This document shows positions 349 through 57,727 of a stretch of 64,000 nucleotides of DNA, one piece after another; positions within the stretch are counted from its first letter, which is position 1; the number at the start of each line of letters is the position of its first letter. The stretch lies in assembly GCA_021399435.1 (NCBI GenBank), contig JAJTUP010000048.1, positions 248,001-312,000 on the forward strand, read 5' to 3'. Position numbers and translations under genes: made by a program. The notes beneath the pieces are model-generated. The model worked only from the letters and a program-made list of their open reading frames with translations. It was not told where the DNA came from and did not search any database. The DNA comes from Diaporthe sp. PMI_573. Its lineage: Eukaryota; Ascomycota; Sordariomycetes; Diaporthales; Diaporthaceae.

Positions 349-2748
349 ATGTCTCCCATTGCGACAGCGGACGGCACGCCGTCACAAAACACCGAGCCAT
401 TGCTTGGGAACAGCGCTCACGAGGTGAATGTCGCACTGAAACTCGCCGCGACGGGGCCTGAATATGGCTCCAGCACAACCGCATCTCTGCTGGATGGAGA
501 GACCAAGCATCTTCAATATCCCCAATCCAGAGTGAACCTAGTCGATCGCTTTGTGGATGAGCCCCGTAAGATAAAGGTGGTCATCATCGGAGGGGGGTTG
601 GCCGGGATTCTGGGAGGGTGCTTGTTGCCGCAGAAGGTTCCTGGTGTTGAACTTGTCATTTACGAGAAAAACCCTAACTTTGTGAGTTCAACTGGAACTG
701 CGATTCTCTTAGCTTCCGACACGCTTCTCCTTGGGGAGTTTTCTAACAGACTCAGGGGGGCACTTGGCTAGAGAATATATATCCGGGCGTTCGCTGCGAC
801 ATTCCATCACACGTCTACCAGTCCACATTCAGTCCAAAGACTGACTGGTCTGACGAATTCGCCCCTGGCACAGAAATCAGAGATTACTGGCAATCTGTTG
901 CTAAGAAGTACAATGTCTACCAATACGCCAGATTTCAACATCGAGTCGAAGACGCCAGTTGGGACGCGGACACCGGTTCATGGACGTTGAAAATAACAAA
1001 CCTTGCATCCGGTTCCGTCGTACAGGATAAGGCTGACTTCGTTCTGACTTGCATCGGTAGATTCAACGCGTGGGAACTTCCAAAATACCCTGGGTTGTCA
1101 GACTTCGCTGGTGTTCTGCGACACGCGTCTCATTGGGACCGTGATTTTGACCCAACAGGGAAGGCTGTTGCTGTCATTGGCAATGGTGCAAGTGGGTAAG
1201 CAACCACTCTTTCCCTTTGCAGTTCCTCCGTCTTTCATGTTTTGGATGTTTCATATCTTGTTACTTGAGACCCGCAGCAGGTGATTAACACGTGAAAAAG
1301 TATCCAGTTGGTTGCAAATCTTCAGCGCAAGGTCGCTAGACTGGATCACTACGCCAGAAGCAAGACCTGGATCGCCGCATCTTGGGCAGGCGATGAGCGA
1401 ACACTTGAGCCCCAGCCTATCCCAGACGAAAAGAAGAAGTATCTCAAGGATCCTGAAACGTATCTCGCATTTAGGAAGAAGCTGGAGGACAAGTACTGGA
1501 GGAAATACGAGACGTTTCTGAAGGGACCTGCCAATGACAACGTGCGCCAGTTTTTCACGGAAACCATGAAGGCCCGGCTTGCCAAGAAGCCAGAGCTATT
1601 GGAAGACCTCGTGCCTGACTTTGGTCCTAACTGCCGCCGCCTCACACCAGGCCCGGGGTATTTGGAAGCTCTCCAAGAGGCCAACGTCGATTTCATACGT
1701 CAACCTATCCAAAGGTTCACCAAGACGGGTATCGAGACTGCTGATGGAAAACAAAGGGATGTTGACGCAATCTTCTGTGCAACTGGAGCTAATGGAGATA
1801 TGGTCCCTCCGTTTTCCATCCGAGCTTCCGGCCGCGATCTTTCGGTAAGCAGCTTCTGGATACAATCTTAATCCCTTCCAGAAGAAACTTCTCCCCTCTG
1901 TGTTATATGCGTTAAAGAACTTATCATACCGCTGGCCCTAAAACAGGCTATAGCAGCATTTTAACCATGTTCTCATTGGTTCTTTGATAGCTGACTCCGA
2001 ATGCTGCAGTCTTTGTGGCGCCGCGATGGAGAATACGGATTCCCGTACACCTACCTAGGAGCAGCAACCCCAGGATTTCCTAATCTGTTCTTCGTTCATG
2101 GCCCACAGTATGTATACATTTCTCTTTCCTGAATTTAATCGTGATTATAGGGGCTTCTATTGTAGACTTCTAATGAATATATAGCGCGACTGGACCAAGC
2201 GGCACAGTTCCGCAAAGCGTTGAGACACAGCTCACGTTTTATGCAAAGATTCTACGCAAAGCCTCTCGTGAGGGTATCAAATCCATCTCGCCGAAGAAGA
2301 AGGCCGCGGATGATTTTGTCGAATACTGCGATGCGTTCTTCGCGAAGACTGTCTTGGTCGAGGGGTGCTCGAGTTGGTACAATGGTGGAACTCCTGGAGC
2401 AAGAATTCGTAAGCACAACTCTTCTCCTTCCACAGATTCCCATTATTTGAATTTTCAAATATTTTAGAATCCATCCATTCAGACTCCATAGCAGGTGATT
2501 AACGTATATTAGATGGCATCTGGCCAGGCAGTTCGAACCATGTCACTGCCATCAGGCGGGAGCCTCGGTGGGAAGATTTCGAATACGAGTACTTGGCTGA
2601 AAGTCAAGGTAACAGCTTGCTATGGTACTTCGGCAACGGAGGAACAAGAGCAGAGCAAGACCCACAGTCGGACATGACTAGCTATTTGAAGGCGCCGCAG
2701 GATATTGATCTGAAGGACCATCATGAGTCTTGGTGGCAACTACCATAG
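349..2748 (+). CDS. FAD-dependent Baeyer-Villiger-type monooxygenase
   Basis: Six exons join in frame: 349-681, 756-1195, 1301-1844, 2010-2107, 2185-2408 and 2513-2748, giving 624 residues. The first Rossmann motif is IIGGGLAG near residue 78, followed by GGTWLEN, as in FAD monooxygenases that bind FAD and NADPH. The fingerprint FAGVLRHASHWD (FxGxxxHxxxW) precedes the second dinucleotide motif IGNGASG. This pattern is typical of Baeyer-Villiger monooxygenases, which insert oxygen next to a ketone; the substrate here is unknown. The C-terminal part (WRRDGEYGFPYTYLG, PNLFFVHGPH) fits fungal members and the length is normal. Introns 2 and 5 belong to one repeated intron family and intron 3 to another. 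The neighbours are a transporter and an oxidoreductase, suggesting a small metabolic group. The gene looks intact. Confidence 0.93.
1196..1300 (+). repeat. Introner-like element family 1, copy 1 (monooxygenase intron 2)
   Basis: This 105-nt intron contains CGTCTTTCATGTTTTGG at 1230 and ends with GCAGCAGGTGATTAAC followed by a short tail and AAG. The core and 3' end recur in introns at 4254-4357 and 31408-31511, and the ends also resemble 2409-2512. Removing it restores GNGASGIQLVANL, the expected family sequence. Confidence 0.8.
1845..2009 (+). repeat. Introner-like element family 2, copy 1 (monooxygenase intron 3)
   Basis: This 165-nt intron begins GTAAGCAGCTTCTGGATA and ends TTGGTTCTTTGATAGCTGAC then TCCGAATGCTGCAG. 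Both ends, and a middle block AAAGAACTTATCA, recur in introns of unrelated genes at 16331-16523, 31104-31293 and 49406-49599. Splicing it out joins exons in phase 0. Confidence 0.85.
2409..2512 (+). repeat. Introner-like element family 1, divergent copy (monooxygenase intron 5)
   Basis: This 104-nt intron shares length, the 5' segment GTAAGCA..ACTCTT..CCTT..CACAG and the 3' end ATAGCAGGTGATTAAC with copy 1. The middle is diverged (ATTTGAATTTTC in place of the CATGTTTTGG core). Membership is likely but weaker than for the other three copies. Confidence 0.55.
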
Positions 2749-3515: not shown

Positions 3516-5442
3516 ATGACTTCTACATTGGAAACGCAGCCCAATGGCGGGCCCATAGGTGAAACCTTCCAGTCCTCCGTTAAGAAAACCAACAGACTGT
3601 GAGCAAAAGCCGTACTGACGACTACAGAAGGCGAGTTTGAAGTGAGATGGTATCGATCAACCTTCTTCAACATCACGATACTCGGTCTTTGTAACTTTGC
3701 AGCGCCGGGAATCTGGGGAGCGATGAACAGTCTGGGAGCAGGTGGAACAGCCAGTCCAGCTCTTTCCAACGCGGCGAACGCTCTGACCTTCTGCTTGATG
3801 GTTGTTTCGTGCTTTCTCTCGAGTGCGATGGTACATTACATCGGGATAAAGGGCGCCTTGATTTTTGGGACGTGAGTGTTCTGGTGGCCTCCTTGGGTTC
3901 CTACTAATCGAGATGCGCTGAGAAATGCGGCGCTTGGTGTTGGAATCCTAAAGCTGATCTCTCTCCTCATAGTATTGGTTATGCTCCCTATGCTGCTGGG
4001 CTCTACACGAAAAGCCGATATGATGTTGACTGGTTGTTACTCTTCGGAGCAGCACTCTGCGGTATCTCAGCCGGTGTATTCTGGATGGCAGAAGCAGCTA
4101 TTGCTATCGCATATCCCGAGCCGTGGAATAAAGGGAAAGCTTTAGGGTATTGGCTTACATATCGATTGTCAGGACAGATCATTGGCGGTGCCGTGAACCT
4201 GGGCCTTAACGCCGACCGCAATACAGCAGGACAAGTTTCCTACACGGTCTACAGTCTGTACCAATATTCTCCTTCTAAGGATGCCCGTCTTTCATGTTTT
4301 GGAAAATTCCATAACTCATCACTCTAGGATCCGTAGCAGGTTACTAACACACACTAGTCCTCTTCATTGCAATCCAAGCCGCCGGCCCCCTCGTCGCTCT
4401 GCTACTCAATAAGCCGAACAGAGTGCAGCGGAAAGACGGGAAGAAAGTTAGCTTGGAAATCCTTCAAAATCCCTGGGTCGAGATGAAAAAGACGGCAAGG
4501 CTTTTCTTTACCAAGAAATTCCTTTTGATCGTGCCCTTCATCGGGCAAGCAGTCTTTGCGGAAGCGGTCTTCTTCACATACTTATCCTGTGAGTTGATGG
4601 AACTGAGCAATAACTTTCGGCTTGGACTCTAACAATTTTGATAGTATGGTTTAGTGTTCGCGTCAGAGCGCTGGGCTCTTTCTTGGGAGGCCTGGCTGCT
4701 ATATTTTCGGGGAACCTTCTCGGCGTAGGTTTCCATGCAGAAATACTCGTGGGGGACATTTAAAAACAGCCCGTGATTACTAATGACTTTCTTGCAGTAC
4801 TGGATAGATCAAACCAAGATACCTCTCAAGCGTCGTGCTCGACTCGCTTTTGCCGTCATCGTCCTTCTACAGGGTGCTTGGTGGATTTGGGCAACTGTGA
4901 TGGTGACTAAATTCAGTCTAACTCACCCAATCTATGATTGGTCCGACCCAGGCTTTGGCCAAGGATTTGGGGTCTTCATTTTCTTGACAGTCGGCTTTCA
5001 ACTGAATTACTTGTACTTGTAAGTGACTACAAACGTTTTGAGAATCAACAACCTGACAATGAACTTCCCTCAAAGACCTGTTTGAGTAACTTTTTCCTAT
5101 GGCAGATACTTTGTTGTTCAAAACCTTGCGGGCGGAGACGAGCCTCAGGTCATTCGATATGCTGCCCTCCTTCGAGGAACAGAATCGGCGTGGCAAGCAT
5201 TGAGCTATGGTCTTGAGTCTCTCACTGTCTTCGCGGAGCATGGGGGGGTCTACATGAACTTTGCTTTGTGGGCAGTGGCAGTAGCTCCCGCCTGGCTAGT
5301 TGTGCGACAATTTGGTGTTGAAGTTGAAAGCTCGACTGAAGCGGTGGCATCTGTCATAGATACTGATACGTCTGACTTTAAGGGCGCTGTGACAAAGGAG
5401 GGCCTGCCTAAAACACAGAGCAGTGTGACTGGTTCGGAGTAG
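3516..5442 (+). CDS. UNC-93-like / MFS-type membrane transporter
   Basis: Seven exons join in frame: 3516-3558, 3628-3871, 3973-4253, 4358-4588, 4645-4724, 4798-5018 and 5106-5442, giving 478 residues. The protein is a polytopic membrane protein of about eleven helices. WYRSTFFNITILGLCNFAAPG near the N-terminus, then IGYAPYAAGLYTKSRY and PWNKGKALGYW are characteristic of the fungal UNC-93 (DUF895-type) branch of the major facilitator superfamily. The substrate is unknown. Intron 3 is a family 1 introner-like element with an unusual donor, GTCTGT. The gene lies 0.77 kb downstream of the monooxygenase on the same strand and could export or import its substrate or product; that link is inference. 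The model is intact. The start is the ATG that gives a short cytosolic tail before helix 1. Confidence 0.92.
4254..4357 (+). repeat. Introner-like element family 1, copy 3 (transporter intron 3)
   Basis: This 104-nt intron aligns almost without gaps over its whole length with the intron at 31408-31511 in an unrelated gene. Shared blocks are CCCGTCTTTCATGTTTTGGA and AGGATCCGTAGCAGG, then ACTAAC and a terminal TAG. The alignment sets the donor at GTCTGT, a weak donor that also restores the reading frame. Confidence 0.85.
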
Positions 5443-8201: not shown

Positions 8202-9126
8202 ATGACTTCTCCAAATAGTGGCGAGACGACGGGAAAGAAGCGTCTTGTCGTCAATGCCTTCGTCGAAATGTGTAAATCCATCCAGGCTGCCGTGCTCGTC
8301 AATCGAATCACTGCCAAGGCTGACATGTATAAGCTTAGGCAGTGGCCGCCAATCTCCGGGGCTTTGTGTTGAATCCAGTCAGGTATATAGGGCCCAAACC
8401 ATGCTGCAGAGGTGCCGCCTTAGATGAAATATAGTCACAAGTTATCTCGACTCTGCAGAACGCAATATGGGCCAGACACAGCAGCCGCAGCACGATGACC
8501 GTTATGCGCAAGCTGAAGAGTACATGAAGGTCATGGATAAGCTCTTTCAATCGTCCTGGAGGGACGATGCAGTGCAGCTGGATCACGAGAATAGAATATA
8601 CACGTCTCCCGATTTGGTGAGGCAGATCAACCACAGAGGGAAGTTCTTCACCGTCCCTGGACCGCACATTGTGCAACCAAGCCCACAACGTACACCGCTT
8701 CTCTTACAAGCTGGTACATCGCGTGCTGGTAAAGTCTTTGCGGCTCAACATGCACGTAAGCCTACCGGACGCAGAAGCTCAAGTCAATTCTGTAGCTGTC
8801 TGACAGTCCGATCGTATGCAGAGGCAATCTTTGTTTCAGCACATTCGCCCCAGGTGTGCGCCAAAAATATCACCGAGGCCCGCCAGCTTGCCTACGAGCA
8901 GCTCAGGAGGAACCTATCCAACCTCAAGGTTTTAGCACTCGTGACGCCTATTCCTAGGAGGACCGAGGAAGAGGCAGTGGCAAAATTTAAGGACTATCAG
9001 CAATACGCGTCCCATGAAGGAGCTCTCGCCCTCTTCACAGGATGGGTAAGCACCTTCGAATCCAATATTAACCCCTTGAAGAAGCCTCTCCCATCTGTGG
9101 CCTGCACGTGCCTTAAAGGACTTAAG
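8202..9126 (+). pseudogene. Decayed FMN-dependent monooxygenase (NTA monooxygenase / DszA type)
   Basis: An N-terminal exon (8202-8271, KKRLVVNAFVEMC) splices over an intron 8272-8338 into SGRQSPGLC, the start of the luciferase-like flavin monooxygenase family. After about 20 further codons the frame is lost. About 150-180 codons of the expected barrel are missing before the family resumes at about 8450 with HDDRYAQAEEYMKV, WRDDAVQLD, GKFFTVPGPHIVQPSPQRTP and LLLQAGTSRAGKVFAAQHA. An intron at about 8755-8820 follows, then FVSAHSPQVCAKNI up to ALALFTGW at 9045. There a family 2 introner-like intron begins and is itself truncated at about 9126, where an unrelated repeat starts. The C-terminal part is absent. 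The gene is therefore broken by an internal deletion and a 3' breakpoint. Confidence 0.82.
9046..9126 (+). repeat. Introner-like element family 2, truncated copy (pseudogene intron)
   Basis: It starts GTAAGCACCTTCGAATC, continues AATATTAACCCCTTGAAG, CCTCTCCCATCTGTGGCCTG and GTGCCTTAAAGGACTT. The last two blocks match the intron at 31104-31293 (CCTCTCCCATTTGTGGCCTG, GTGCCTCAAAGAACTT). The branch point and acceptor half is missing. Confidence 0.75.
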
Positions 9127-9206
9127 GCTTTGGCCACACTGTGTTTTTTTATCAATTAACTCTTCAGCAGCCCTAAGCTTATACACAAAGTCGATAACGG
9201 CTTTAT
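9127..9206 (-). repeat. Dispersed repeat, copy 1 (second copy inverted at 52997-53117)
   Basis: The complement of 9160-9206 matches 52997-53043 over 47 bases with three differences, all C-to-T or G-to-A. The complement of 9127-9156 (GATAAAAAAACACAGTGTGG) matches 53089-53117, so the two copies differ by an internal stretch of about 45 bases. It is probably a fragment of a transposable element. It marks the breakpoint of the FMN-monooxygenase pseudogene. Confidence 0.7.
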
Positions 9207-15263: not shown

Positions 15264-16727
15264 ATGTCGACACCGGAGCACTCGGTACAAGACTTTGATA
15301 CTGCAAGCTTGCAAACGATTATGACAGGGAGCAATGAGACAATGATTTCAGCAAACAAATCCATGTTCTTCCTCGAGATGAACCGATTCGCTCCCATTTC
15401 AGTCGTCCTGCTTCATATGCTATGTAAGACCCCCAGTTAAGTCTCCTTTTGGAAAACGCAGCTCGTCTCTGCTCCCGGCACAGTCCTGGAGTCTTCATTG
15501 CATAGCCTACTCTTCGAAGCTAGCTAGCTGCGTTTTTGGCTTGTTGTCTCTCTTAATGAGTGGCAGCTTGACATGGCTATACACGTATAGGCAGCTCTGA
15601 ATCGTAGCTTTCGTCTATACCATCGTTGTAGCAGAAGTGCTGAAGGTGCTCGCGATGCTAATCCTGAAGATTGTAGTCAGCTCTCACCTTGAATGGAAGC
15701 ATATATGGCCAAAATTGGCCGAGCACCACCTACTGATCCCAGACCTCCCTTGCCACTCCAAGTCTCGCAATATATGCAAGAAGGAAGATTACTCGGTTGG
15801 TCTGTGCGCCGACCTAGTCGCAGAGATGATCCGCGAGCATGCCCACGATGGTCGTGCGCATGTAATAGGCATAGGTACGAGTGGGTTTATTGTCTTGGAC
15901 ATCATCTGGAGACATCCCGATGTTGTTGCGAGTGGTTTCGTGTCAGGGGCATGGCCTCAAAAAGGAGTACGACTCACCGTGACCAGGCATTCTCGACTCC
16001 TTTATGCCGGGCTGTGGTCGATCCTGCACACCCGTGAGTGTCGCTCTATTTCTTTACCAGTTTTTGATATGTTCTCATTGGGCTTTGCTCGAACCCCTCA
16101 CCTCATGCTCCGTACATAACTGATATACCGAAGCGGGCTCGCTGTTTTTCAAAATGTCTGGATATAGCGCCGAGTATCACAAAGACGAGTTGTTGGACTC
16201 AATCAAGCGGAACGGAAGCTCACGTCTTGCCCAAGCCGGATGTACATACGCAAAAGAATGGCAAGGCGTTCAGTCTGTGGAGGCTGGAACAGCTGACAAG
16301 AGAATATGCATGATCGCTGGGGGGAAGCCAGTAAGCAGTTTTGGGATACGATCTTAACCGCTTCAAGAACAAACATGATACCCCATCTTTAGCCCACACA
16401 ACAAAGACTTTATACAGGCTGCAGGCTTTGAAACAGGCCATTACCACCTTGTAGCTCACTCCTCACCGTATTCGCGTGAAACTACCTCTTTGGTTCTTTG
16501 ACAGCTGAGTCTGAATGCTGCAGGACAATCCAGAGGGCGTAAGGGAAGCCGCAAAGCTGCCCAAATCTCAAAGCAATGGTGGTGAGGGTTCCACGACCTG
16601 TGCCTATCACGTTCGTGAGGCCATTCTCTCCTGGAATTTACAATTTCCACAACTCTTCGCCAAGGCCATTCAACGCTGGGTAGAACGTCTGTCTATGCCG
16701 GACGAGTTCGAGGACATGCCTATATGA
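15264..16727 (+). CDS. Alpha/beta hydrolase
   Basis: Four exons, 15264-15423, 15677-16033, 16134-16330 and 16524-16727, give 305 residues. The order VVLLHMLFSSHLEWKHIWP, HHLLIPDLPCHSKSR, then VIGIGTSGFIVLDIIWRHPD fits the alpha/beta hydrolase fold. The nucleophile elbow reads GIGTSG, where the usual G-x-S-x-G serine is replaced by Thr or shifted by one residue. Related proteins I recall read GISTGG, so activity is uncertain. The C-terminal part has RICMIAGGKP and ends WNLQFPQLFAKAIQRWVERL, the helix after the usual catalytic histidine position. The 253-nt first intron contains unrelated sequence, and the last intron is a family 2 introner-like element. Joins are in frame throughout. The substrate is unknown. 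Confidence 0.85.
16331..16523 (+). repeat. Introner-like element family 2, copy 3 (hydrolase intron 3)
   Basis: This 193-nt intron starts GTAAGCAGTTTTGGGATA, has ATCTTAACCGCTTCAAGAA and ends TTGGTTCTTTGACAGCTGAG then TCTGAATGCTGCAG. It matches copies in the monooxygenase, DUF3445 and receptor genes at both ends, and the middle block GCTGCAGGCTTTGAAACAGG also aligns. Confidence 0.85.
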
Positions 16728-17120: not shown

Positions 17121-17966
17121 CTAATGCCGTCCCCGGCCCCTTCCCCGGCCCCTCCACTTCCCACCACGGCCACCAAATCTGCCCTGGTGGCCTCCGCGCT
17201 CGAAACCACGGTCTCTGTCCCTGTCTCTGTCCCTGTCCCGGTCCCTGTCCCGGTCTCGGTCGCGGTGCCTATCCCCGAATTCCCTGATCGAGCCGTCGTC
17301 CTCGTCATCCACGTGTTCCCTCTTTGCCGGGGAAGGCTCCTCGTCATCCTTCTTCTCAACCCTGACACTTGGCTTTTCCAAGCCCGTCTTCCACCTTGGG
17401 TGGGCGCCCTCCTTGCACTCTGGTCCATCCGGGCAGAAACCAGCGAGGTAGTAGGGGCACATCTTCTTGCGGACATGTTTCTTGGCGCACCTGGACCCCA
17501 GCGGGCAGAAGCCCTGGTCATAATGTGGGCACGGCGGCAGCTTGCTCTGGGGGTCGATATGCAGGTACAGACACTCATCGCCGTTGGAGCAGAAGCCGTT
17601 GCGCAGGAAGAAGTTGCACTCGGGCATCTTCCGCAGGTTGAACTCGTGCAGAAACTCGCAGCTCTCTCCCTTTTTGCACAGGCCACGCAGCCAGTGCTTG
17701 CAGACGAGCGAGTTGAAAGGGTGCCCACCGTCCTGCTTGCCGCCGCTGTGGGGGACGGAGACGTGGCGCTCAGAGCAGCGGGTCCCGAGGGGGCAGTGGC
17801 CATTGATGTAGGCTTTGCATACTGGGCGATCGGCGGGAAGGCTGTGGAGGTAGGTTCGTTGGAGGAAAGGCGTAAAGGAGAACGTCGGTGAATTCGAAGG
17901 CAGTGCCTTGGACAGCAGCTGTCGCGATACCTCGCCTGTCGCTGTCGCTGTCGCTGTCGCCGCCAT
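17121..17966 (-). CDS. yth1: CCCH zinc-finger mRNA 3'-end processing factor (Yth1/CPSF30)
   Basis: A single exon on the minus strand encodes 281 residues from the ATG at 17966. Five CCCH fingers lie in a row: [77 protein letters not shown] and [20 protein letters not shown]. This is the hallmark of CPSF30/Yth1, the subunit of the nuclear cleavage and polyadenylation factor that contacts the AAUAAA signal. The N-terminus has an Ala-Thr repeat. The C-terminus has an acidic patch, about ten Arg-Asp dipeptides encoded by a hexanucleotide repeat near 17213-17262, and an RGG-rich tail, features common in filamentous fungi. It is divergent from the thioredoxin reductase gene. It contains no introner-like element. 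Confidence 0.95.
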
Positions 17967-18662
17967 GGTCGGGGGGGGGGGGTTGTGGTTGGCAGGCAGT
18001 GTCTCCCGACGCTGCGGTATGCGCTTGCTTCTGCCTAGTTCGCACGATGGATAATTGTGTGTTGCGGCTGTAGTTATGAGTTGAGGTTGACTGCTGGGGA
18101 ACAGTGGTGGATCAAGCAGCAGCAGCGTGGCGTCGCAAGTCCAGATCGTACGCGCCGCATTTGACGTCGACGCCATCCCCTGTCGAATTGGCATTAGCCC
18201 GAATGCAGGCTGCCTAGGTACCCAGGTACCTGGCTATCTTATCAACTGGGCCCAAAGGGTTGCTGGAAGGCCGTGGATCGGCGCGGGAGCCGCATCATGG
18301 CCGGCCGTCCGCCGCAATTCGCGATCCACCCTTGGCTCGCCTTGTTGACAAATCTCAAACTGCAGCAGACTATATCTATCTAGTCCTCCCCTGCGCCCTG
18401 TCTCCCCCCCCGGCAAGACAACGGCAAGACAACCCCTCCAAAGACGTTCCCTCCTCCTCGACCCACGTCTGCCACGTCGTGATCACCTCCCCTCCGCCTC
18501 GGGTCAGCCGCGCCCCAAACAACCGCCAAGCTGTCTTTCAGATATTTCACGCGTCCCCTCCGCTCCAGCGCGGCCAGTCTGTCCGCCGCCGCCCTTGCCA
18601 CTGCGAGCTTCAGTTCCCACACGCGCCTTTCCTCCGACCTGCACCATCTCAGCGTCAACAAG
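17967..18662. promoter_or_regulatory. Bidirectional promoter region, yth1 / thioredoxin reductase
   Basis: 696 bases separate two divergent start codons. It contains a run of ten G near 17972, pyrimidine-rich stretches near 18400-18660 upstream of the reductase start, and an AGGTACC/GGTACCT palindrome near 18219. Promoter role is inferred from position only. Confidence 0.5.
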
Positions 18663-30516: not shown

Positions 30517-32250
30517 TCAGAAACCTTGCTGAGCATGCCACTTTTCTTCCCATCCAGGGAAAAAGGGACTCTCGTCCAGGGTATGAACATCCCAGTCGCT
30601 CGGTACAACTCCTTTCTCAATCTGCTCCTGGGCCCACTTTGCACATGCCTCTATGGTGATATCTTTGACATAGTCCACAGCCTTGTAGTCAATCAGACTT
30701 TTCTTACCCTCCTGCAAGACTTTGAGCAATATAGCGGGCACAAAAGGCTCGTCTCTAACCTCGGTGATCTGAGAGAAAACCGCCTTGAAATTAAAAACGA
30801 TTGCACCACTGAGCGGCAACCTCCGCAATGTCTGGTAGTCGCACCTCAATTTCACGTCATTGATGGTCAGATCGTCCTTTCGCGCAGCAAAGATGCTGCG
30901 CTCCCATGACTTATTCTGCATCATGCGTGGGCTGCTAAATAACGGGGCGTGATCCTCCAGACTCCAGCTACACCGCTGAATAGGCTGGTCGACCGCCATC
31001 TTGGCGAAGAATCGATCCAAGCTGAATGCCATTTTCTCGGCAAAGTCGGGTACGTCTTGGTGGATGTTCCTCAGTGGCTTGCCTCGGTGCAGACCGATAT
31101 CCCCTGCGGCATTTAGAGTCAGCTTTCAAAGGACCAATGGAGTAGTCTCATATACAAATTATGGGAGGAAATGGTCACAATTTGGCCATAATCTATCTTA
31201 AAGCCAGCAGCGTGACAAGTTCTTTGAGGCACAGGCCACAAATGGGAGAGGCGTTTCCTTGAAGAGTGAAGATTGTGTCCAGGGGCTGCTTACACCCAAC
31301 TGATGAGCACACCATCGCTGCCCGCAGGTAATAAAAGCCGTCGTGCTCGTTTCGAAAGACCAGGGCGTAGTCTTCCGGTATATTTTGGTAGACTATCTCC
31401 AACGGCGCTAAGTATGACGTTAGTCCTGCTACGGATCCTAAAGTGTTGCATTCTAGAACATTCCAAAACATGAAAGACGGGGATCCGTGACAGGAGAGGA
31501 GTGATACTTACGAGTTTTGAGGAGGTCTGTTCTTGTGTCGAGGAGACGGTTTTGGAGGATGGTGTTATCGTTGTCGAGTCTGAAGTATTGAGGATAGCGC
31601 TTGCAAATGAATTGAACCAGCATTTCCATGAGTTCTCGGCATGCTAGTTCTGAACCCGGGTCAGAGTAGAAGATGAGTTCCCCATGCTTCTCTTTGAGGT
31701 GCTGCCTTTGCTTCATGACCCAGACATAGCTCTGCTCTAGCTCAACCCACCAATCGGGGTCAAATCTGTAATGAGCCATAGTTTGATGATAAGTCCACCT
31801 GAAGGGTCGGAATGGTCGAAAGGTGGCTTTTTTGATATCAAATTGTGGCCCGTACGGTTCAGGATATCGCACACCAGTGAGAGTTGAGTAGTCTGGAAAT
31901 CTTCCAAGGGCTCGTATGTCCTGCGTCGAGAATCCAGTCGGAGTGTATAGATCATCTCGGTCCCAGTCTGCCGTACGAGTTGATGGCACGGCGCATTTCC
32001 GCAGTACTTCGGGAGGGACATGATCGTCAGGGCCGGCCGAACCCTTCAGCTCCAGCCCAGCCAGCGTGTGGCGCCTAGAGGGGGGAAATTGAAAGATCCA
32101 AGGGCAATTTTCGACCGCTGCAGTCGCATCTTTGACACAGAGAGCGCCTTTTCTTCGAGTAAGGTGGAATACGAGGCCAAGAAATGCAAGAATGACTACA
32201 CAAGCAGCTTGTGGAACAACGCCCGTTCTCGTGAAAAGTATCCTCTCCAT
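30517..32250 (-). CDS. DUF3445 protein, heme-dependent oxidative N-demethylase-like, membrane-anchored
   Basis: Three exons on the minus strand, 32250-31512, 31407-31294 and 31103-30517, give 479 residues. An N-terminal hydrophobic helix (VVPQAACVVILAFLGLVFHL) is followed by RRKG, suggesting a membrane anchor. The core PFRPFRWTYHQTMAHYRFDPDWWVELEQ and, near the C-terminus, TLRRLPLSGAIVFNFKAVF are hallmarks of DUF3445, whose characterised bacterial member is the alpha subunit of a heme-dependent oxidative N-demethylase. The join GWDIGLHRGKPLRNIHQDVP across intron 2 is what the family predicts. Both introns are introner-like elements, intron 1 of family 1 and intron 2 of family 2, so this gene carries one of each. 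The physiological substrate is unknown. Confidence 0.9.
31104..31293 (-). repeat. Introner-like element family 2, copy 4 (DUF3445 intron 2)
   Basis: This 190-nt minus-strand intron starts GTAAGCAGCCCCTGGACA, contains CCTCTCCCATTTGTGGCCTG and GCTGCTGGCTTTAAGATAG, and ends TTGGTCCTTTGAAAGCTGAC then TCTAAATGCCGCAG. It is closest to the receptor copy at 49406-49599. Removal restores the DUF3445 reading frame exactly. Confidence 0.87.
31408..31511 (-). repeat. Introner-like element family 1, copy 4 (DUF3445 intron 1)
   Basis: This 104-nt minus-strand intron runs from GTAAGTATCACTCC through CCCGTCTTTCATGTTTTGGA and AGGATCCGTAGCAGG to a TAG acceptor. It aligns end to end with the transporter intron at 4254-4357 although the host genes are unrelated. 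Confidence 0.87.
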
Positions 32251-48856: not shown

Positions 48857-50465
48857 TCATATAACAGGTGCATTCTCGTCGGCGGCCTTACACTGCACCC
48901 CTGTTGACGTAACCTTCCCAAATGAAGCGTCCGGACCCCTTTGTTGTTTGGAAGTAAAAGAGTTTCGGTAGCAGTCACCACTCCCAAATGAGAATCTATT
49001 CATTTGTATTGGTAAGGCGTTGCCGTCTTCCAACAACACTTCTTCCGACTGCTGTCGGCGCAACTCCACGTTGTCATTGCCCGCTTGCCCCGCGCTCTCA
49101 TCGCCGGTCCGTCGTTGCTCGCGCGTGATCTTCACCTCGTGCGTGACAATAATGACCGATCCGATGCTCTTCTGGATGACGGGCCAGAATACGGGGAGAG
49201 ATGCACAAATGGCCGCGAGGTCCACCTCCATGGATGACAGTACAATTGGCGTGGTGCCATACCAAGTCGGATCAAAGGTAGGGAACGTGGCGGCACGCGT
49301 CTCCACGATACTTTGTAGTCGCCAGATAGAGAGCATGTTCACGCTGAGAGAATTAGCCACACAGTTCCAGTTGTAGTCTGGGGCTCACGTACACGCCACC
49401 GAGGACTGGGGCATTTAGAGTCAGCTATCAAAGAACCAAGTAGCTTCATACGAATTGGGGGAGGAAAGGATTCGCAATGTGGCCATACCATGTCTCGAAG
49501 CCAGCAGCGTGCCAACTTCTTTGAGGCATAGTTAGAGCACAAGTGGAAGAGGGAGGCTTTTCCCTCAAGGGGTTAAGATTTTATCCAAAAGCTGCTTACC
49601 GAACAGTCCCAAAAGCCCCCAATAGGAATTCTTCCTCATGCCCTGCTTGAAGAACATAGGCACCGCAATGGCAAGAACGACAGCATCGAGTAGCATGTTA
49701 GTCGCGGCATGGCTCTCGTACGTCCCTACAAAACTCTCAACATCCAGGGACCCATATCCGTACCGCGTGGCGGGCATCTCCATCTTCCAGAACCCAGCGA
49801 CAGGGACTGTTGGGACCCAGCCGATGATGCTGTAGGCTAGGCCCCACAGGATTGTAAAGGCGATCGTGGCAAGCGTGGCTACGTAGAATTTGGACCCCTG
49901 GTCATAGATCCGTAGGTACTGGAAGAGCAAGGCCAGCTTGATGAGCGCTGTCGAGCCAGGGTATGTTGCATTGGCTATCCAGAAAGCCTGTGAAGGAATG
50001 CTACTCAGCCAGAGCCGTATTTGGAAAGGGTGGTTGGGGGGTTGGAGGATGGGGAAGATGGTCATACACGCAAGTACCCCTTGAACTCGTGTGCCGACAA
50101 GAGCAACAGGTGTTGGCCCATGCCCGTGCTGGTCATGACACATATAGATATACCACCAATCGTTATGGAAACCTACAGGAGGCATCAGTAAAGTAGCATA
50201 TAAATGTAGCGGTCATGGCTACCCGGAATAGTGGCGTGCGAATCTGGTCCAGCTGTGTACTTACCAAGCTCAGCGCCACGAACAGATCATCCCACCACGG
50301 GGACCGCATGATAAAGAACCGAGTATACAACCTGAAGAGGACACATATCGTCGTGATAATCTTTAACGATATTACGATACCCAATATCGCTGCTCGTCGA
50401 TTGAGTACTGGCTGCTCCTCTCCCAGATTATCCACAGCTCCAATCAGGTCAATGAGAGTCGACAT
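48857..50465 (-). CDS. PTH11-like seven-helix receptor (fungal rhodopsin-domain protein)
   Basis: Five exons on the minus strand, 50465-50265, 50172-50068, 49987-49600, 49405-49393 and 49343-48857, give 397 residues. NRRAAILGIVISLKIITTIC begins helix 1, RSPWWDDLFVALSL helix 2, AFWIANATYPGSTALIKLAL helix 3, and DLAAICASLPVFWPVI helix 7. The W-W-D-D and ALIKLALL-type signatures define the fungal rhodopsin-like (PTH11-type) family, used in surface and host sensing in some pathogens. There is no CFEM domain. A Ser-rich C-tail of about 120 residues follows. Exon 4 is only 13 bases and sits directly beside a family 2 introner-like intron. Start MSTLIDLIG was preferred; an upstream in-frame ATG at 50573 is possible. 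It appears intact. Confidence 0.88.
49406..49599 (-). repeat. Introner-like element family 2, copy 5 (receptor intron 3)
   Basis: This 194-nt minus-strand intron starts GTAAGCAGCTTTTGGATA, has AATCTTAACCCCTTGAGG, GCACGCTGCTGGCTTCGAG and TATGGCCACATTGCGA, and ends TTGGTTCTTTGATAGCTGAC then TCTAAATGCCCCAG. It aligns along most of its length with the DUF3445 copy at 31104-31293. Confidence 0.87.
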
Positions 50466-52996
50466 GTCGTGACTTTCGGTGCCAACCGGTACTCGTTCGT
50501 CTCCAGGATTGGTCAGCAGAGGAATGCACCAGGAGGTCCATTCAGCGGAGACATGCAGAATCCAATGAGGCAAGTCACGAGGAGGTCAAGGACAATTAAT
50601 CACTGGGCAAGAAGCTCACGGCGACCTCTTCCGCGACACACACACATACTTATGTGTCAGAAGATGCGCTGTTATATGGTCGCAGAAAAACAGGTCGGTG
50701 TGCCCCCTCCTTCACAAGTCGGGATGGTCAAAGCGACTCTTGGTCTGCGACAGCAGACGTGCAGATCGCGACCCAGAGCCGTGGGCTCGACCGCCACGTT
50801 GCGGCGCCAGCGGCAGCACTCCGTTGCGCCTATAGCAGCAGGGCATCATGTGATATATCCCTCCCGACACGGCTTTGCGGCGTTGCATTGCGGCAACAGC
50901 TAGTGAGCTCCAGTTGGCGTCTGGGCTGTTTTCCTAGCGGAAGGGTCTCCGAAACTTTGTTTCGTGGGACCTGCACAAACAAGACAGACGGAGTGCACAA
51001 ATGTGATACAGACAGGGATGCCGCCCCAGCTGGCCCGGGTCGCCAACCGTGCATATGCATAGTGATGATGAGTAAACAGGGGCTATCCAGGTCTACAGAC
51101 GCGCAGCGCTGAGAGGAGTTCCCAAAGACAGTCCAAGCGTTTTCAGCGTCCCCTGGAGACGCATCTCCTTGTGTATACCTCTCTCAAGCAGAGGATGATT
51201 GGGGCGAGGAGGGCTTGATTTGCCTCTTGTTTCTACATGTGGGGAAACTGCTTCTATATAAACTTCCTCATGAAGACCTGTTTACAGACGTGTTAGAAAT
51301 CTCTACAATCACACCAAATGCCGGCGCAGATAGGCAATTCTCGCCCATCTCCCCAGATTCTGGACAGGTGTGGACGCTGACGTTTTCCTGTCTTAACACA
51401 TTCGCACACACTATAGGACAGGTACTAACAAAGTTGATCACGTTGAAGACCTCGACTGCCTCGCTCCTTATATCATTTTCATTTTTGGTAGGCTGTCTTC
51501 TTTCCGCTCAATACCAAACAAACAACAATCTCAGGTACAGCTTCCCTCGGATGGTTGGAGGCATGGGCTATCGATACTGTTGCATCCGCGTCAAGGACAG
51601 CAATTTGAAGGCATTGTGATCTCGTCGCGTTAGCGGAGATCCGAAGTTCATCTGAGGCCCAAAAGTGCGCTACACGTTGGACGTGAGGATGACCCTTTAA
51701 GCTCAGCCCATTCATGTTCACTAGGGTCCTATTAAAGTTTCGGCTGCCGTTTGCCGAAGCCCTGGCCACCACAAGTTGACCAAGGATGTATTTGCATGTT
51801 CCAGGACGCCTTGCCACCCTGCTGTGACATTGTCTAGCCAGGCTGTGTTTTGAGCCAGCCAAATGTCTCCGAATAAGGAGTGATCTACGTCTAAATTGCC
51901 GCGGTATGCTCACATCTGGGCCATGATTCCTGGCTCGTGTACTGTCCTTGCCGTCATTTGCGGGCTGAAGTCAGTTTGTCACATTGACATCAGTAGACTC
52001 CACGTAAACATTGCCTTTCCACGATCAGGCACATAAAGAACCCCAAGGACTGAGATGCTATCGACTTGTCCTTGACCGTGTCCGGCCGGTTGCCATGGTC
52101 CCGCTAGTATCAAATAGCATCATTGTGTGCACTGCGTTTCGAACTGTCGATCACGTCAATGTGTAGCTGGGATCTGTGGAAGCGATCGGGATGCTGCCTC
52201 CGAAGAATGACGAGAAATTATTCATGTGGGCCGTGCCCTAAGAACAAGATATCCGGCATATAGGCCCGGGTTTTGGAAGAGGGAGAAGGGCGGCGGGGAG
52301 GTTCGATGTAACATGTGAGAAGAAACCGGATTGCAGCGTGTCACAACCCAATCTCGATGATCACGGGAGATGAACCAAGTCTGCAATAGCGTTGCATACC
52401 CCGCCACTGCATTTGTTGGCCGTGTAGTGTAGGATACCTCTTCAGTTTGACTCGGGCTGACTCGGGGGCTTCACTTTGAGAAGCTCGAGTATCGGCACTG
52501 AGAGTTTGAGCCTGAGCACTGGCATAATCGAGCTCGGGGCAAGTAACTGGAGGCCGACTCCAACTCCTCGGCCAACTGACGCCGCTCCTTATCAGACGGA
52601 AGATTTTGCGGAACAGGGGCAGGCAAATTGAGTTTGAAATGTCGATTTTGACAGCTCGCGACTGGATCAGCCTCCCGATCCCCAGCACCGCTTCTGACTC
52701 TCAGCAAAGGAAGTTGAAGCAACCAGCCATGATATTGTTGAGACAGGGTTCAATTCTGCCTTCCGGTGCGATTCGCGGCATGTCTTGATGCGACTTTAGT
52801 CTTGTACAAGAATATCGTCTCCTCACACAATCTCTTGGTAAACTTTATCTCTAACGCACAGACCTCCGTGGCATGCTCTACGCCACACCTTACATAAGAA
52901 TGGCTACAAGCAAGCTACAGAGGTCTGTAACTAGAACGTAGTTTTAGCCATAAAAACTGGGATATAATATATTATACTACTATCATAATATAATCA
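50466..52996. other. Gene-less region before the transposon block
   Basis: No supported gene. Open frames at 50469-51112, 51479-51913 and 52341-52722 overlap others on both strands or lack family features. From about 52900 base composition shifts to AT-rich. Confidence 0.4.
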
Positions 52997-53117
52997 ATAA
53001 AGCTGTTATCGACTTTATATATAAGCTTAGGGCTGCTGAAGAGTAGTCAGAAGGTTGAGCAGATAGTAGACAGACTAATAAACAGTCGATAAAAAAAAAA
53101 CATGGTGTGGCTGAAGC
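52997..53117 (+). repeat. Dispersed repeat, copy 2 (matches inverted 9127-9206)
   Basis: 52997-53043 (ending AGGGCTGCTGAAGAG) and 53089-53117 (GATAAAAAAAAAACATGG, GTGTGGCTGAAGCC) match the complement of 9127-9206. Differences in the first block are all transitions in the RIP direction. Confidence 0.7.
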
Positions 53118-53360
53118 CCCACGTATATAAATTCATCGCTTGATACTACCACCACGGACAATATGCTCATCATCCTACAAAAGGATGTAAATTTGAACTG
53201 TACATTTAAGGAGAGGGCCAGAAGCTTTACTCTATCTTATGTATCCGCCTCAAGACTAGAAGTACGGCATGTTCACAATGATCAGAAATGTCACGGTACC
53301 CACCAGCTACCATGGTCCACTATATAAACGCCACGGCTTCGCCTGTGGCTTGTCGCTTCT

Positions 53361-53426
53361 AACGTGGTTGCACCAGATCTCGGCCCCTCCCTTGGTTCGG
53401 CCCCCCGATTTTGGTGCAGACACACT
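53361..53426. repeat. Small inverted repeat, possible MITE remnant
   Basis: TGCACCAGATCTCGG near 53371 faces CCGATTTTGGTGCA near 53406, separated by a GC-rich loop. The outer left end TAACGTGGTT resembles the ends of the pogo-type element at 53749-56073. It is too short to classify. Confidence 0.35.
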
Positions 53427-53748
53427 ATAAAACACCTACTTTTCAATCCACCTTTCTAAGCTCAAAACTATTCCAAAGACCCTAACCCTAGGCTCTAAAT
53501 AAAGTTTTTTAATTAAATTTTAAGATAAAAATATTTGGAAAAATCTAAATTTACTTTATTATTTTAAAAAGAATTTTTAAATCTTAATATTAGAATTTGT
53601 TAAAGATTAGTAATAAATTACTAGTATTTTATAACAATAATAATATTAAGCTTTTTATAGTAATAATAAGTATATTTAAATATATAAAAAATATTTTTGG
53701 ATATAATAAATATAAAATAAATAGAAATAAAGACTATTTTTACTAATA
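53427..53748. other. AT-rich flank of transposon block
   Basis: Over 80 percent A and T by eye, with runs of TTTAAA and TATAAA. No gene is seen; it looks like extreme RIP-type decay. Confidence 0.5.
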
Positions 53749-53951
53749 ATATAGTTCACCAGTCAGCCATCATTATCACATACCTGCTACTTTTAACTAA
53801 ATCTACTAACTTTAACCAACCCTAGCACCCACTAAGGGCAAGCAAATAAGTAAAAGTTGGCACTAATTAGTACCAACTAGTCCCAATTACTTATTTTCAA
53901 TTGATTTAGTCAATTTAGAGTTATTAGTAGTGCTACAGTACTAGTCCGAAG
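53749..53951 (+). repeat. Left terminal inverted repeat of pogo-type element
   Basis: It starts ATATAGTTCACCAGTCAGCC and runs to CTAGTCCGAAG; it pairs with the complement of 55872-56073. Confidence 0.85.
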
Positions 53952-55871
53952 TAGACGACTTTTGGTAGGAAAATCAACTTCCCTACTAAAATAGAGTATT
54001 TCAGCCATGTAGGATCAACCTCAATCTACACCAGCCAGACCAACTATTTAGGTAGTCCGCCACGGACTGCTTTAAAATATACTATTATTTACTTAGAATC
54101 TAAATAACTAGCCTCTTTTACATCTTCCTCACAAGTTCTCGCATTATACCCAGTCTTGTTACAGTTGCCACATCGTCGTTTAGATGGTCCGCCGTAAACC
54201 GCCTTATCAGCACCACTAGCTATTTCACTAGTTAGCCGCTTCCCCTTCTCTTTTTCTTCAATTATCACCTGGGATTCCTTAATACTAAGTACTCCTCTAA
54301 GCTATACTCGGCTCTGTTTAGCCCTCTGGTGTTTAGCAAGGCTAATATTAGCCTTCTCAAGAGTGCGGACCTAATCATTTAAAAGAGTAATCTTATACAC
54401 CATTACTTGTGTACCCTTTATAAACTTCTTAACTACCTAGAGAATTAGTGTAGGGGAGCTGCCCTAATAGGCAGATATCCTACCCTTAATAAAACTTGAT
54501 TGCTAGATAGTCTGGCGGGCGTTAGATGGTGTTTGTGATTCCCATTTAGATAGTAATATAAGGAGGGATTATACTAGAGTTTATAAGCGGATATCTAGCT
54601 TGGAAATAATAGAATCTAGGTCCTATGGAGAAATCCTAGCTCCTCTAAACCCAGATTTCATGTTTTCTTCCATAAAGATCTTATCATAGGCTACCTTGAA
54701 TATAATGAAGAACTCAGACTTGGTAATATAGTTAATAGAGGCCTGGATAAATAAATTAATCTCATTACTATATATATGCTTTAATAGTGAGTATAATACA
54801 ATATCTAATAGCTAGAGTAGATGAGATGAATATAGTGGTATACTAATAGGGATAATGTTATTTATCTTATAGTACTACTTAAACTCCGCTAAGACATGGC
54901 TCTCATAGCTATTAAGGATGAGCATCTAGTATACACCCTTTGTCTATTACTTTATATACTTATTAAAGTATTAAATCCATTCAAGACTAGTTATATTATC
55001 TATCTACCCATTTAGAGTAGGCTTAATAATCCAGCTTAGTAGGAAGCCTGACTCTGTTATCTAGTTAGCAAGGTAGTAGGTACCTTAGATAATCACAAAC
55101 GGCAGGATATACTAGCCCTTCGTATTAATATATTTAATAACTATTACCCATTCCTGGTTTCTAGGCTATATAGATTTAGCCTTTCTATGTTGATCAGAAC
55201 GTGTAACAACTATTAACGTGGTTATTACACCCATCATAAAGCTGGTCTTGTTAAAGTTATATAGGTCGTTGTCTATGATACCATACTTAGCTATTATGTT
55301 ATAAAGTAGGCGGAACCAGTTCTTAATAACCTCTAGATCTTCATAGAGGGCCCTCTAGTAATCATAAGGCTGATTAAATCTAGTTTTCAAGCTTAGTTAT
55401 GTATCCACGAAGCATCGTACCTAGTTCTTACTAACTGGCTTACCATTATGCAATGCCAGTAGGAGGTTAGCCATATCTTCTACACTAGAAAGTTGTATTG
55501 GAAATCCTCGTATATCTTGCTTAATGATATATTGAATAAGTATTTACTCTTTAATTTAGTCAAGTTTATACTTCTTAACACGTGATTCTTTATAATATAG
55601 TTGGTTATTCATCCTGTCGCGTAGGGTAGTTCTGGGAATACTAAAGATCCGAGCAGCCTAAGTTATATTTAAGGGTTTCTTTTAATTTTTTTTAGAATTC
55701 TTAATTACCTAAAGTACTAGTTAGATTTTATCTTCTTTTAAGTAGATTAGTATTGTAGATATTGATTTCTAGTATGTTGAATATTTAAGTAGGTAGAGTG
55801 ATGCGTGACTAATGTGAAAAATGGGGACGCGATCTATACTAACAACATGCCTGCCCACCAAAACCTTAAAT

Positions 55872-56073
55872 CTTCAGACTGGTACTACAATACTACCACA
55901 ACTCCAAATTGACCGAATTAATTGAAAATAAGTAATTAGGACTAGTTAGTACTAATTAGTACTAACTTTTACTTATTTACTTGCCCTTGGTAGGTGCTAG
56001 GGTTGGTTAAAGTTAGTAGATTTGGTTAAAAGTAGCGGGCATGTAATAATGATGGCTGACTAGTAAACCACGT
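55872..56073 (-). repeat. Right terminal inverted repeat of pogo-type element
   Basis: The complement starts ACGTGGTTTACTAGTCAGCC and ends CCAGTCTGAAG. This copy keeps more C and G at the tip than the left one. Confidence 0.85.
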
Positions 56074-56178
56074 TATACTTTTATATTAATAGAAAAATAA
56101 AAGTTTATAATTTCTCTATATAAACTTTATATAAAGAAACTATAAAACTTAAGTTTTATTAATAGAAATTAATATATA

Positions 56179-56386
56179 TGTTAAATGGCCTTTGCCATAT
56201 AGTGTAATGTATGTATATACATGTCTATATAATTGGTTCTAAATTCGTTAATGTTTATCTAAACTATGAAACAAGTAGAGAAGTTCGTACACAGACCTAA
56301 GAGGTCTGCATACACTCCCTTGCCTGCTTACTTATCCTCCCTAGCTAATATGGCTATGTACGATTAGCCTCAATACTATTCCAACA
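56179..56386 (-). repeat. 3' LTR of copia element
   Basis: 208 bases; on the minus strand it starts TGTTGGAATAG and ends CATTTAACA. It contains the palindrome CAGACCTAAGAGGTCTG. It differs from the other LTR mostly by transitions. Confidence 0.92.
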
Positions 56387-56924
56387 CTAGGGGTCTTTTA
56401 TTTTCTAATTATACACTCCCTTTAGGCTAGTCGAGCAAGTTGAATTGCTTGTATGCCCTTTTCCTATAATAAATAAAATCACCCTGCCTAGACAGGTTAT
56501 ACTGCCATGGTTTTAGTAGGCGTACAATATAAGTAAACCCCTAATTAGTGGTCCACATCAAGCGCCTTTCGTACTAACTTTTTCAACCTTCTTTTCAACA
56601 CCCTTTCTGACCTGCTTTCTAACTACTTTTTCTCACAACTTTCATCATACTAGCCAGAAGGCTAGAAGAGACTGTTGCCTGTAACTCACTCGTACGAGTA
56701 AGCCTTTTTCCCAGTTAGTTGAGGTGGTCTGTGCACAGCGCCCTTCTAGTGCCAGCACAAAAACCTCACGCCTTTCGCCTTTTACTTCAACCTTCCCTCT
56801 TCCTCTTCTCTATCACACAACACTCTCTCTCTCTCTCTTACACACATATACACATACCTTGTATGTTGTGCAATCCAAAACATCTTCAAAACTTACCCCC
56901 CATTATCACCAAATCTTTCGTACA

Positions 56925-57727
56925 ATGTCTGATCATGGTTCTTTGCGCGGCCCTTACGGGTCGCCTCTCTCTCCGTATGCTTCGCCTATGCCTACGTCTG
57001 CCATTATAGCACCTGTCCCTACTCCACAGACAGGCCCTGCCTAGTCTCCTCTCACGCCTCTCTTCGGTACTTTAACATACATTCCTGGTCCGACTATAAG
57101 CTATCAGATTGTAACCCTCCCGACCAGTCACTTTCTAAATCGTACTTTCCTGGCCTCCCTCATCATCAATATCCATACAACCCTTTTCCCACTATTATTC
57201 CTATTCTAACATTTTCAAAGAACACTAAGCATACAATTGCTACACTCCCCTCACACAACATTCAAATACTGTGCAATATCAATATACAGCTAGTCGACAT
57301 CATCACCTACATCATTTATTGTCCAAGCTACTACTACGCGATCCTGATTCAGTCACATAGTTAGGATAGCAATCAATACACCAAATACTCGCACAGTTCG
57401 CCTAATATACGCTGGTTCGAGGGGTATTTTCAGCTACCTAGATTTCAGGGGAGTACTTATACAGGTTGCGTCTAGCAGTCACAGGGTCGCCAGTACCCTC
57501 ATCATGAGAACTACCAGCTACGCAGAGCCCGTACTCGTAGAAGAGGTTGTAAAGATTATGGTAGCCGTAGTAGTGGAAATAGTCCAGACAATAGTAGCCC
57601 GGGACCCTCTCATGGCCCAGTAACCTTAGAGGACATCAAGTAGAAGATCAAGCAGGAGGATGCGGGTTTCATAATTAATCCATATACCTTTAAACATATA
57701 GTCGAGTAGGCATATCCTAGGTCTTAG
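56925..57727 (+). pseudogene. Extra antisense ORF within the copia element
   Basis: On the plus strand, opposite to pol, a reading frame starts MSDHGSLRGPYGSPLSPYAS. After a frame change near 57065 it continues rich in Tyr, Pro and Ser (DYKLSDCNPPDQSLSKSYFP, PHHQYPYNPFP), then RRARTRRRGCKDYGSRSSGN and SPGPSHGPVTLEDIK. It ends INPYTFKHIVE and YPRS. Only a handful of TAG codons, each a likely former CAG, interrupt it over about 265 codons. A CT-rich leader (about 56700-56924) with a CTCTCT run precedes the ATG, resembling a fungal promoter and 5' UTR. No family is recognised; it is neither RNase H nor a typical envelope gene. Confidence 0.6.

What the first reader, a model, noticed from the sequence alone, without database searches (positions are those of the whole stretch)
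1845..2009. Introner-like elements, family 2: the same intron in five unrelated genes
Introns at 1845-2009, 16331-16523, 31104-31293 (minus) and 49406-49599 (minus), plus a truncated one at 9046-9126, share a 5' end of the form GTAAGCAGCTTYTGGATA, the block AATCTTAACCCCTT, internal blocks such as GCTGCTGGCTTTAAG, and a 3' end TTGGTTCTTTGATAGCTGAC followed by TCTAAATGCYGCAG. Host genes are a monooxygenase, an alpha/beta hydrolase, a DUF3445 protein, a PTH11-like receptor and an FMN-monooxygenase pseudogene. The conserved boundaries are exactly the splice sites, and the proteins are only complete when these are removed. Ordinary introns in unrelated genes do not share sequence. This is the signature of introner-like elements, reported in some green algae and Dothideomycete fungi; a family with this sequence may be undescribed.
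Basis: partly seen in the sequence, partly recalled or inferred. Interest (0 to 1): 0.88.

Follow-up and report, generated by a model that had tools for sequence, protein, structure and literature searches.

The report
A self-spreading intron in fungal genes
Copies of one short DNA sequence sit, nearly always in the reading direction of the gene, inside dozens of unrelated genes of a Diaporthe-like fungus, where each is predicted to be spliced out as an intron; relatives appear to lack the copy at both sites checked, so these are likely newly born introns that have spread as a family.

Summary
Four full-length copies and one truncated copy lie in the window. Pattern and BLAST scans list 165 places in the same 83.7-Mb genome, reversed patterns none. 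I read 108 of them; a profile counts 113 copies. All 89 end-to-end copies run GT..AG, and conservation stops at both splice sites.

Taking the element out leaves an open frame of at least 100 aa in 84 of 89; kept, a frame stays open in 2. A Pfam match crosses the junction in 17 of 40 peptides. At the two loci compared, relatives 74-90% identical read straight through. Neighbouring introners share a strand in 32 of 32 pairs. No target duplication or long terminal inverted repeat was found.

It is an introner family, in Diaporthales (Sordariomycetes). Two traits differ from the fungal introner-like elements in print: it prefers YA|TG (A|TG in 36 of 84, 1.4 expected), not AG|GY (1 of 89), and it has no clear RNA fold. 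A second family (~104 bp, hairpin) shares its genes. Spread through excised RNA is likely but inferred; splicing is not shown by RNA.

The parts
1845..2009 (+). Family 2 introner, full length (165 bp), in a gene with a weak FAD-oxidoreductase match; phase 0
9046..9148 (+). Family 2 introner, truncated copy (profile positions 1-124 of 189)
16331..16523 (+). Family 2 introner, full length (193 bp), phase 0; junction peptide matches no Pfam family
31104..31293 (-). Family 2 introner, full length (190 bp), splits a Trp codon (T|GG) of the HODM/DUF3445 gene
   Evidence: read through in relatives
49406..49599 (-). Family 2 introner, full length (194 bp), phase 1, in a Fung_rhodopsin (PTH11-like) gene
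31408..31511 (-). Family 1 introner (104 bp) in the same HODM/DUF3445 gene
   Evidence: read through in relatives
1196..1300 (+). Family 1 introner (profile match 1196-1294; next AG at 1300 or 1307), upstream of the 1845 copy
2409..2512 (+). Family 1 introner (profile match to 2511, AG ends at 2512), downstream of the 1845 copy
4254..4357 (+). Family 1 introner (104 bp)
30517..32250 (-). HODM_asu-like (DUF3445) host gene: three exons, 479 aa once both introners are removed; the low end is computed from the protein length and includes the stop

Best explanation
This is an introner family: 113 counted copies of one ~189-bp GT..AG element in unrelated exons, 85 of the 89 end-to-end copies in sense by reading frame, predicted to be removed by the spliceosome as U2-type introns and likely copied to new sites through their excised RNA. 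Shown from sequence: full-width relatedness, boundaries exactly at the splice sites, donor GTAAGC (84 of 89), branch-site-like CTRAC in the last 30 bases (83 of 89), acceptor YAG (89 of 89), an open frame after removal, no target-site duplication, a preference for YA|TG, and proteins of relatives that run on without gain or loss of a residue at two family-2 sites. Inferred: that the copies are spliced in the cell. Inferred: that the spreading form is the excised intron RNA, inserted into the coding strand of transcribed DNA (for example by reverse splicing at an R-loop) and then copied into DNA. Inferred: that the YA|TG preference belongs to that insertion step.
For: Boundaries: 2.0 bits at the first and last two intron bases, 0.24 and 0.48 bits at the adjoining exon bases; 89 of 89 end-to-end copies GT..AG. 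Frame: spliced ORF of at least 100 aa in 84 of 89 and at least 200 aa in 62 of 89 (47% and 18% at random points of window 1-51 kb); kept element open in 2 of 89; sense frame longer than antisense in 85 of 89. Pfam matches cross the junction by 5 or more residues each side in 17 of 40 peptides scanned (the first 40 of 79 made), 12 above the curated cut-off; three have equal lengths in protein and profile (OPT 72, CoA-transferase III 140, sugar transporter 92). Empty sites: the 31104 gene in P0125, P0128, P0139, P0141, P0156 and the C137:683566 CoA-transferase in P0175-P0178, P0182, P0183, P0186 read through, while P0185 (the query's own exon part but for one residue) carries introner read-through at that point. 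Orientation: 32 of 32 neighbouring introners under 600 bp apart share a strand. No TSD signal beside the junction in 89 copies. Terminal inverted repeat only GCAGC/GCTGC, 5 bp.
Against: No RNA data: splicing is predicted only. The YA|TG preference (A|TG 36 of 84, |ATG 9 more) is not the AG|G protosplice site that reverse splicing would be expected to favour, and 39 of 84 sites fit neither. Stable folding, taken in print as a sign of an RNA intermediate, is absent: subfamily consensus z 0.48, 0.00, -2.63, -0.52, whole consensus 0.20, 15 single copies mean -0.11. In 4 of 89 the antisense frame is the longer. No reverse transcriptase or other machinery was sought. Empty sites were tested at only two family-2 loci, and that the relatives' proteins are unspliced is inferred. 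57 of 165 listed places were not read.
Confidence: 0.65

Rival explanations
1. A small non-autonomous DNA transposon whose ends happen to be GT and AG inserts at YATG without duplicating its target; only sense, exonic copies survive because they are spliced.
For: A sequence-specific target (A|TG 36 of 84, expected 1.4) without a TSD is unusual for an RNA route and recalls elements that insert between A and T, such as Helitrons (recalled, not tested against a library). Across eukaryotes most introner families carry at least one DNA-transposon mark (PMC9860276, passages seen).
Against: Intergenic copies should survive unselected, yet the sense frame is the longer in 85 of 89 and at least 100 aa in 84 of 89, and 32 of 32 neighbours share a strand. 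No TIR beyond 5 bp. Helitron ends (5' TC, 3' CTRR, recalled) are not there. The same paper reports no TSDs or TIRs in ascomycete families.
Confidence: 0.2
2. Excised intron RNA or its cDNA is captured at double-strand breaks by end joining, as proposed for Hypoxylaceae stwintrons; the YA|TG preference then reflects where breaks fall or microhomology at the ends.
For: Seamless junctions without TSD fit; the model is described in PMC8469720 (passages seen).
Against: Breaks do not explain sense orientation unless only sense copies are kept, and intergenic copies should then occur; A|TG at about 26 times expectation is strong for random breaks.
Confidence: 0.12
3. Not a mobile family: ordinary introns shared by descent in duplicated genes, or gene conversion between paralogues.
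For: Two sets of loci are true duplicates with shared copies (C161:138.9-145.1 kb and C177, 98-99% identical; C173:247172 and C79:1144855, 96-98%); 5 of 89 end-to-end copies were dropped as such duplicates.
Against: The flanks of the others are unrelated (identity 0.313), their domains differ, and conservation ends at the splice sites.
Confidence: 0.03

Closest known systems
Fungal introner-like elements (ILEs) of Fulvia, Dothistroma and Zymoseptoria (van der Burgt 2012, recalled and as cited; PMC4457414, parts 1-2 of 4 read)
   Same: Closely similar spliceosomal introns in unrelated genes, co-linear with transcription (PMC3443670, passages), several families per genome, gain relative to relatives.
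   Different: The preferred site here is YA|TG; AG|GY, the preference of van der Burgt as cited in PMC8469720, is seen in 1 of 89. No stable fold in family 2. Host order is Diaporthales (Sordariomycetes), not Dothideomycetes.
Introners across eukaryotes, ascomycete group (PMC9860276, passages seen)
   Same: Intron similarity over the whole width, both splice sites carried, no TSD or TIR, bias to genes.
   Different: Whether this species or family is in that survey could not be checked (supplements not readable here); the passages I saw name no YA|TG motif.
Sister stwintrons and cropped introns of Hypoxylaceae and Xylariaceae (PMC8469720, PMC12403724, passages seen)
   Same: Sordariomycetes; seamless insertion, no TSD, functional on the coding strand only; one nested pair here (family 1 inside the donor of family 2, C35:424 kb) has stwintron-like architecture.
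   Different: Those show terminal inverted repeats or near-terminal stems and seemingly random sites; family 2 has a 5-bp terminal match only and a preferred site.
DNA-transposon introners of Micromonas and Aureococcus (Huff 2016, recalled and as cited)
   Same: Repeated introns in many genes.
   Different: No TSD, no TIR, both splice sites carried by the element.

Membership tests
Introner (broad sense: introns alike over their whole width in unrelated genes) | Full-width sequence similarity between introns of unrelated genes | tested here: met
   84 de-duplicated copies, mean identity 0.759 against 0.313 for flanks; exon domains differ
Introner (broad sense: introns alike over their whole width in unrelated genes) | Element ends coincide with splice sites and the frame is open once removed | tested here: met
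   89 of 89 end-to-end copies GT..AG; ORF of at least 100 aa in 84 of 89
Introner (broad sense: introns alike over their whole width in unrelated genes) | Precise splicing seen in RNA | not testable with these tools
   no RNA reads available
Introner (broad sense: introns alike over their whole width in unrelated genes) | Gained at positions empty in relatives | tested here: met
   Two family-2 sites and one family-1 site, by proteins of relatives inferred to be unspliced; the other sites were not tested
Fungal introner-like element, strict (van der Burgt 2012, as cited) | Co-linear with transcription | tested here: met
   sense frame longer in 85 of 89; 32 of 32 neighbours same strand
Fungal introner-like element, strict (van der Burgt 2012, as cited) | Insertion preference AG|GY | tested here: not met
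   AG|GY in 1 of 89; A|TG in 36 of 84 instead
Fungal introner-like element, strict (van der Burgt 2012, as cited) | Predicted stable RNA secondary structure | tested here: not met
   z 0.48, 0.00, -2.63, -0.52 for the four large subfamily consensuses (one of four low); 15 single copies mean -0.11
DNA-transposon introner | Target-site duplication | tested here: not met
   no TSD signal beside the junction in 89 copies; no residue gained or lost against relatives at two sites
DNA-transposon introner | Terminal inverted repeat of 6 or more bases | tested here: not met
   only GCAGC/GCTGC, 5 bp, on the consensus
Helitron-like element | Insertion between A and T with 5' TC and 3' CTRR ends (recalled) | tested here: not met
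   A|T preference present, but ends are GTAAGC and mostly CTGYAG
Stwintron | Internal intron splitting a splice element of an outer intron | tested here: inconclusive
   one locus: a family-1 copy preceded by GT and directly followed by the AAGCAG of a family-2 copy, C35:423937-424226; no RNA test

The most novel reading that the evidence does not exclude
A spliceosomal intron family that moves as a site-choosing RNA element: its insertion machinery reads YA|TG on the coding strand, not the protosplice site, and needs neither a target duplication, inverted repeats nor a stable fold, so intron birth here runs by a targeted route not yet described.
Probability: 0.3. Interest if true: 0.85.

Novelty: new variant of a known kind. 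Interest (0 to 1): 0.63.

Why it matters
How new spliceosomal introns arise is an old open question, and ascomycete introners are the outliers that lack DNA-transposon marks (PMC9860276). This family adds a sharp, testable clue, a target motif that differs from the protosplice site, in an order for which my searches of the held papers found no introner report. The same genes hold two introner families, with nested and tandem cases, and relatives with apparently empty sites, so the insertion step can be tested directly.

Tried and rejected
Target-site duplication: every pairing of 23 x 23 flank positions for 89 copies; best single z 2.97 among 529; the best run of three (z 3.4, not corrected for the many runs) pairs upstream bases -8 to -6 with the second to fourth downstream bases, away from the junction, so I do not read it as a TSD. 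A parse with AGT duplicated on both sides is rejected because the spliced frame would lose a base, while relatives align without a gap.

Stable RNA fold as the driver: rejected for family 2 (one of four subfamily consensuses is low at z -2.63). Family 1 does have a hairpin (alifold z -4.77 on 25 copies).

A|TG as start codons: rejected, since Pfam matches run across such junctions. In-frame Met codons (22 of 29 YA|TG) exceed YATG usage in the same ORFs (239 of 499, p 0.003) but hardly CATG usage (186 of 321, p 0.06), so I take the preference as nucleotide-level.

Two mixed organisms as the cause of uneven density: GC and GC3 do not differ between rich and poor contigs. Not settled, because gene-copy searches did not complete. 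The 11 rich contigs were picked after seeing the counts, so the p-value is not to be trusted.

Other collections: no exact match to the 5' pattern in genome contigs or to a 3' pattern in viral contigs; neither is expected to hold fungi. Rfam on the window: one tRNA only.

An early pass turned minus-strand loci round by mistake; one search corrected it and its counts replace one search's. Of 108 listed places read, 106 overlap a profile copy and 7 profile copies were not listed; the two others are probably the 5' parts of internally deleted copies.

Full report
What is there. The four full-length introns align over their whole width and match a profile of the family from end to end; the fifth is a truncated copy, 9046-9148. 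The same genome (83.7 Mb, 217 contigs, unnamed) holds many more. The 5' pattern with up to 3 mismatches has 116 places, two 3' patterns have 72 and 140, the reversed patterns none. Searches list only part of their places and one search scored only its best 40 candidates; the union of listed places is 165. I read 108 of these in 100 loci; 106 overlap a profile copy, and the profile adds 7 that were not listed. In all it counts 113 separate copies: 99 near full length, of which 89 are exact at both ends, and 14 partial. The other 57 listed places were not read.

Which organism. The protein coded at 17121-18194 (YTH1) is 92% identical, over 64% of the ORF read, to that of Diaporthe eres; one nameless sequence scores slightly higher, and the next named hits (Discula, Gnomoniopsis, Cytospora) are also Diaporthales by recall. 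No species can be named from these tools.

Anatomy. The consensus is 189 bp. Donor GTAAGC in 84 of 89, CTRAC in the last 30 bases in 83 of 89, acceptor CAG in 65 and TAG in 24. Information content is 1.9-2.0 bits in the first five intron bases and 2.0 in the last two, but 0.24 at the last base of the upstream exon and 0.48 at the first base of the downstream exon. Subfamilies differ by sequence; nearest neighbours among 84 are 93% identical at the median and 98% at most. No identical pair was seen outside duplicated loci.

Genes. Taking the element out leaves an open frame of at least 100 aa across the junction in 84 of 89 and at least 200 aa in 62 of 89; random points in window 1-51 kb give 47% and 18%. 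The kept element stays open in 2 of 89. Of 79 junction peptides I scanned the first 40 with Pfam at E up to 0.01: 24 match something, 16 nothing. In 17, by my count, a match crosses the junction by 5 residues or more on each side, and in 12 of these it passes the curated cut-off. Domains include HET, OPT and MFS transporters, GH10, GH43, subtilase, SET, PhyH, DSBA, PBP and CoA-transferase III. The HODM/DUF3445 gene of the window gives 479 aa only if both its introners (31408-31511, family 1; 31104-31293, family 2) are removed.

Empty sites. Database proteins marked lgn look like plain ORFs read from contigs without splicing. Several begin with residues that fit intron read-through, two seem to start at a GTG, and P0185, whose exon part is that of the query but for one residue, carries a read-through that fits the introner's 3' end. 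That they are unspliced is my inference. For the HODM gene, P0125, P0128, P0139, P0141 and P0156 (75-87% identical) run straight through both introner sites. For the CoA-transferase at C137:683566, P0175, P0176, P0177, P0178, P0182, P0183 and P0186 (74-90%) run straight through. The longest contigs of P0175-P0178 are 15-155 kb, too long for transcripts. No residue is gained or lost at the junctions. Gain in this lineage is the simplest reading, at two family-2 sites and one family-1 site.

Target. Dropping five copies in repeated loci leaves 84 sites. A|TG occurs in 36, |ATG in 9, and 39 fit neither (2 of these AT|G); ATG at any one offset is expected 1.4 times. The base before the A is C or T in 32 of 36. 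Beyond that base the motif carries little information. AG|GY occurs in 1 of 89. Codon phases of 79 sites are 39 (phase 1), 21 (phase 0), 19 (phase 2); the excess of phase 1 at YA|TG sites is mostly what codon usage predicts.

Orientation and mechanism. Of neighbouring introners of either family under 600 bp apart, 32 of 32 pairs share a strand; one pair appears twice because its locus is duplicated. With the sense frame the longer in 85 of 89 (4 against), this points to a step tied to the transcript or coding strand. No TSD beside the junction, no TIR above 5 bp, no stable fold for family 2. I therefore favour insertion of excised intron RNA into the coding strand, followed by copying into DNA. 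This step is inferred. The YA|TG preference is the finding that it explains least well.

Relation to what is known. PMC9860276 (passages) says that ascomycete introner families have no TSDs or TIRs. PMC8469720 (passages) cites an AG/GY preference and stable structure for the Dothideomycete elements and finds neither a site preference nor TSDs in Hypoxylaceae. PMC12403724 (passages) says that the Xylariales stwintrons sit at seemingly random sites. PMC3443670 (passages) says that introner-like elements are co-linear with transcription. So this is an introner in the broad sense; as a strict introner-like element it fails two stated traits, and I do not file it there. Searches for introner with Diaporthe, introners with Sordariomycetes, and intron gain with Diaporthe found no paper on this (the three papers were seen in the listing only). 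The supplements of the large survey could not be read, so the family might be listed there.

Limits. No RNA; 57 listed places unread; own-genome paralogue searches did not complete; no machinery sought; empty sites tested at two loci.

Noticed in passing
window 1196-1300, 2409-2512, 4254-4357 (+), 31408-31511 (-); 34 profile hits in the window and fetched loci: A second introner family, about 104 bp, GTMAGY..ACTAAC..YAG, with a central hairpin (two hits are opposite-strand shadows of it). A|TG in only 1 of 18 exact copies, so its target differs.
   Followed up: partly
C35:423937-424226 (L035): A family-1 copy sits between a GT and the AAGCAG of a family-2 donor: an introner apparently nested in an introner, stwintron-like.
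   Followed up: partly
C145:359495-359874 (L088): Two family-2 copies in tandem with a single base (T) between them; the empty site would read CA|T|GG.
   Followed up: partly
C124:580621, C124:1008990 (-), C138:282429: A form of about 127 bp lacking the part between two TGTGGCC repeats occurs at three places: a short derivative that itself spread, or a recurrent deletion.
   Followed up: partly
C161 (18 listed copies in 485 kb) against C1 (5 in 4.1 Mb): 116 of 165 listed copies lie on 11 contigs holding about 10% of the genome (contigs picked after the count). Cause unknown; GC and GC3 of fetched loci do not differ.
   Followed up: partly
C161:138913-145137 and C177:250313-256248; C173:247 kb and C79:1145 kb: Near-duplicate segments, 96-99% identical, sharing the same introner copies; recent duplication or uncollapsed haplotypes.
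   Followed up: partly
C174:1006591-1007976 (L008): Five introners of both families within 1.4 kb on one strand.
   Followed up: no
window 52001-64000: GC drops to 0.34-0.38 from about 0.5, with a tRNA at 58250-58320; looks like an AT-rich, repeat-worn block.
   Followed up: no
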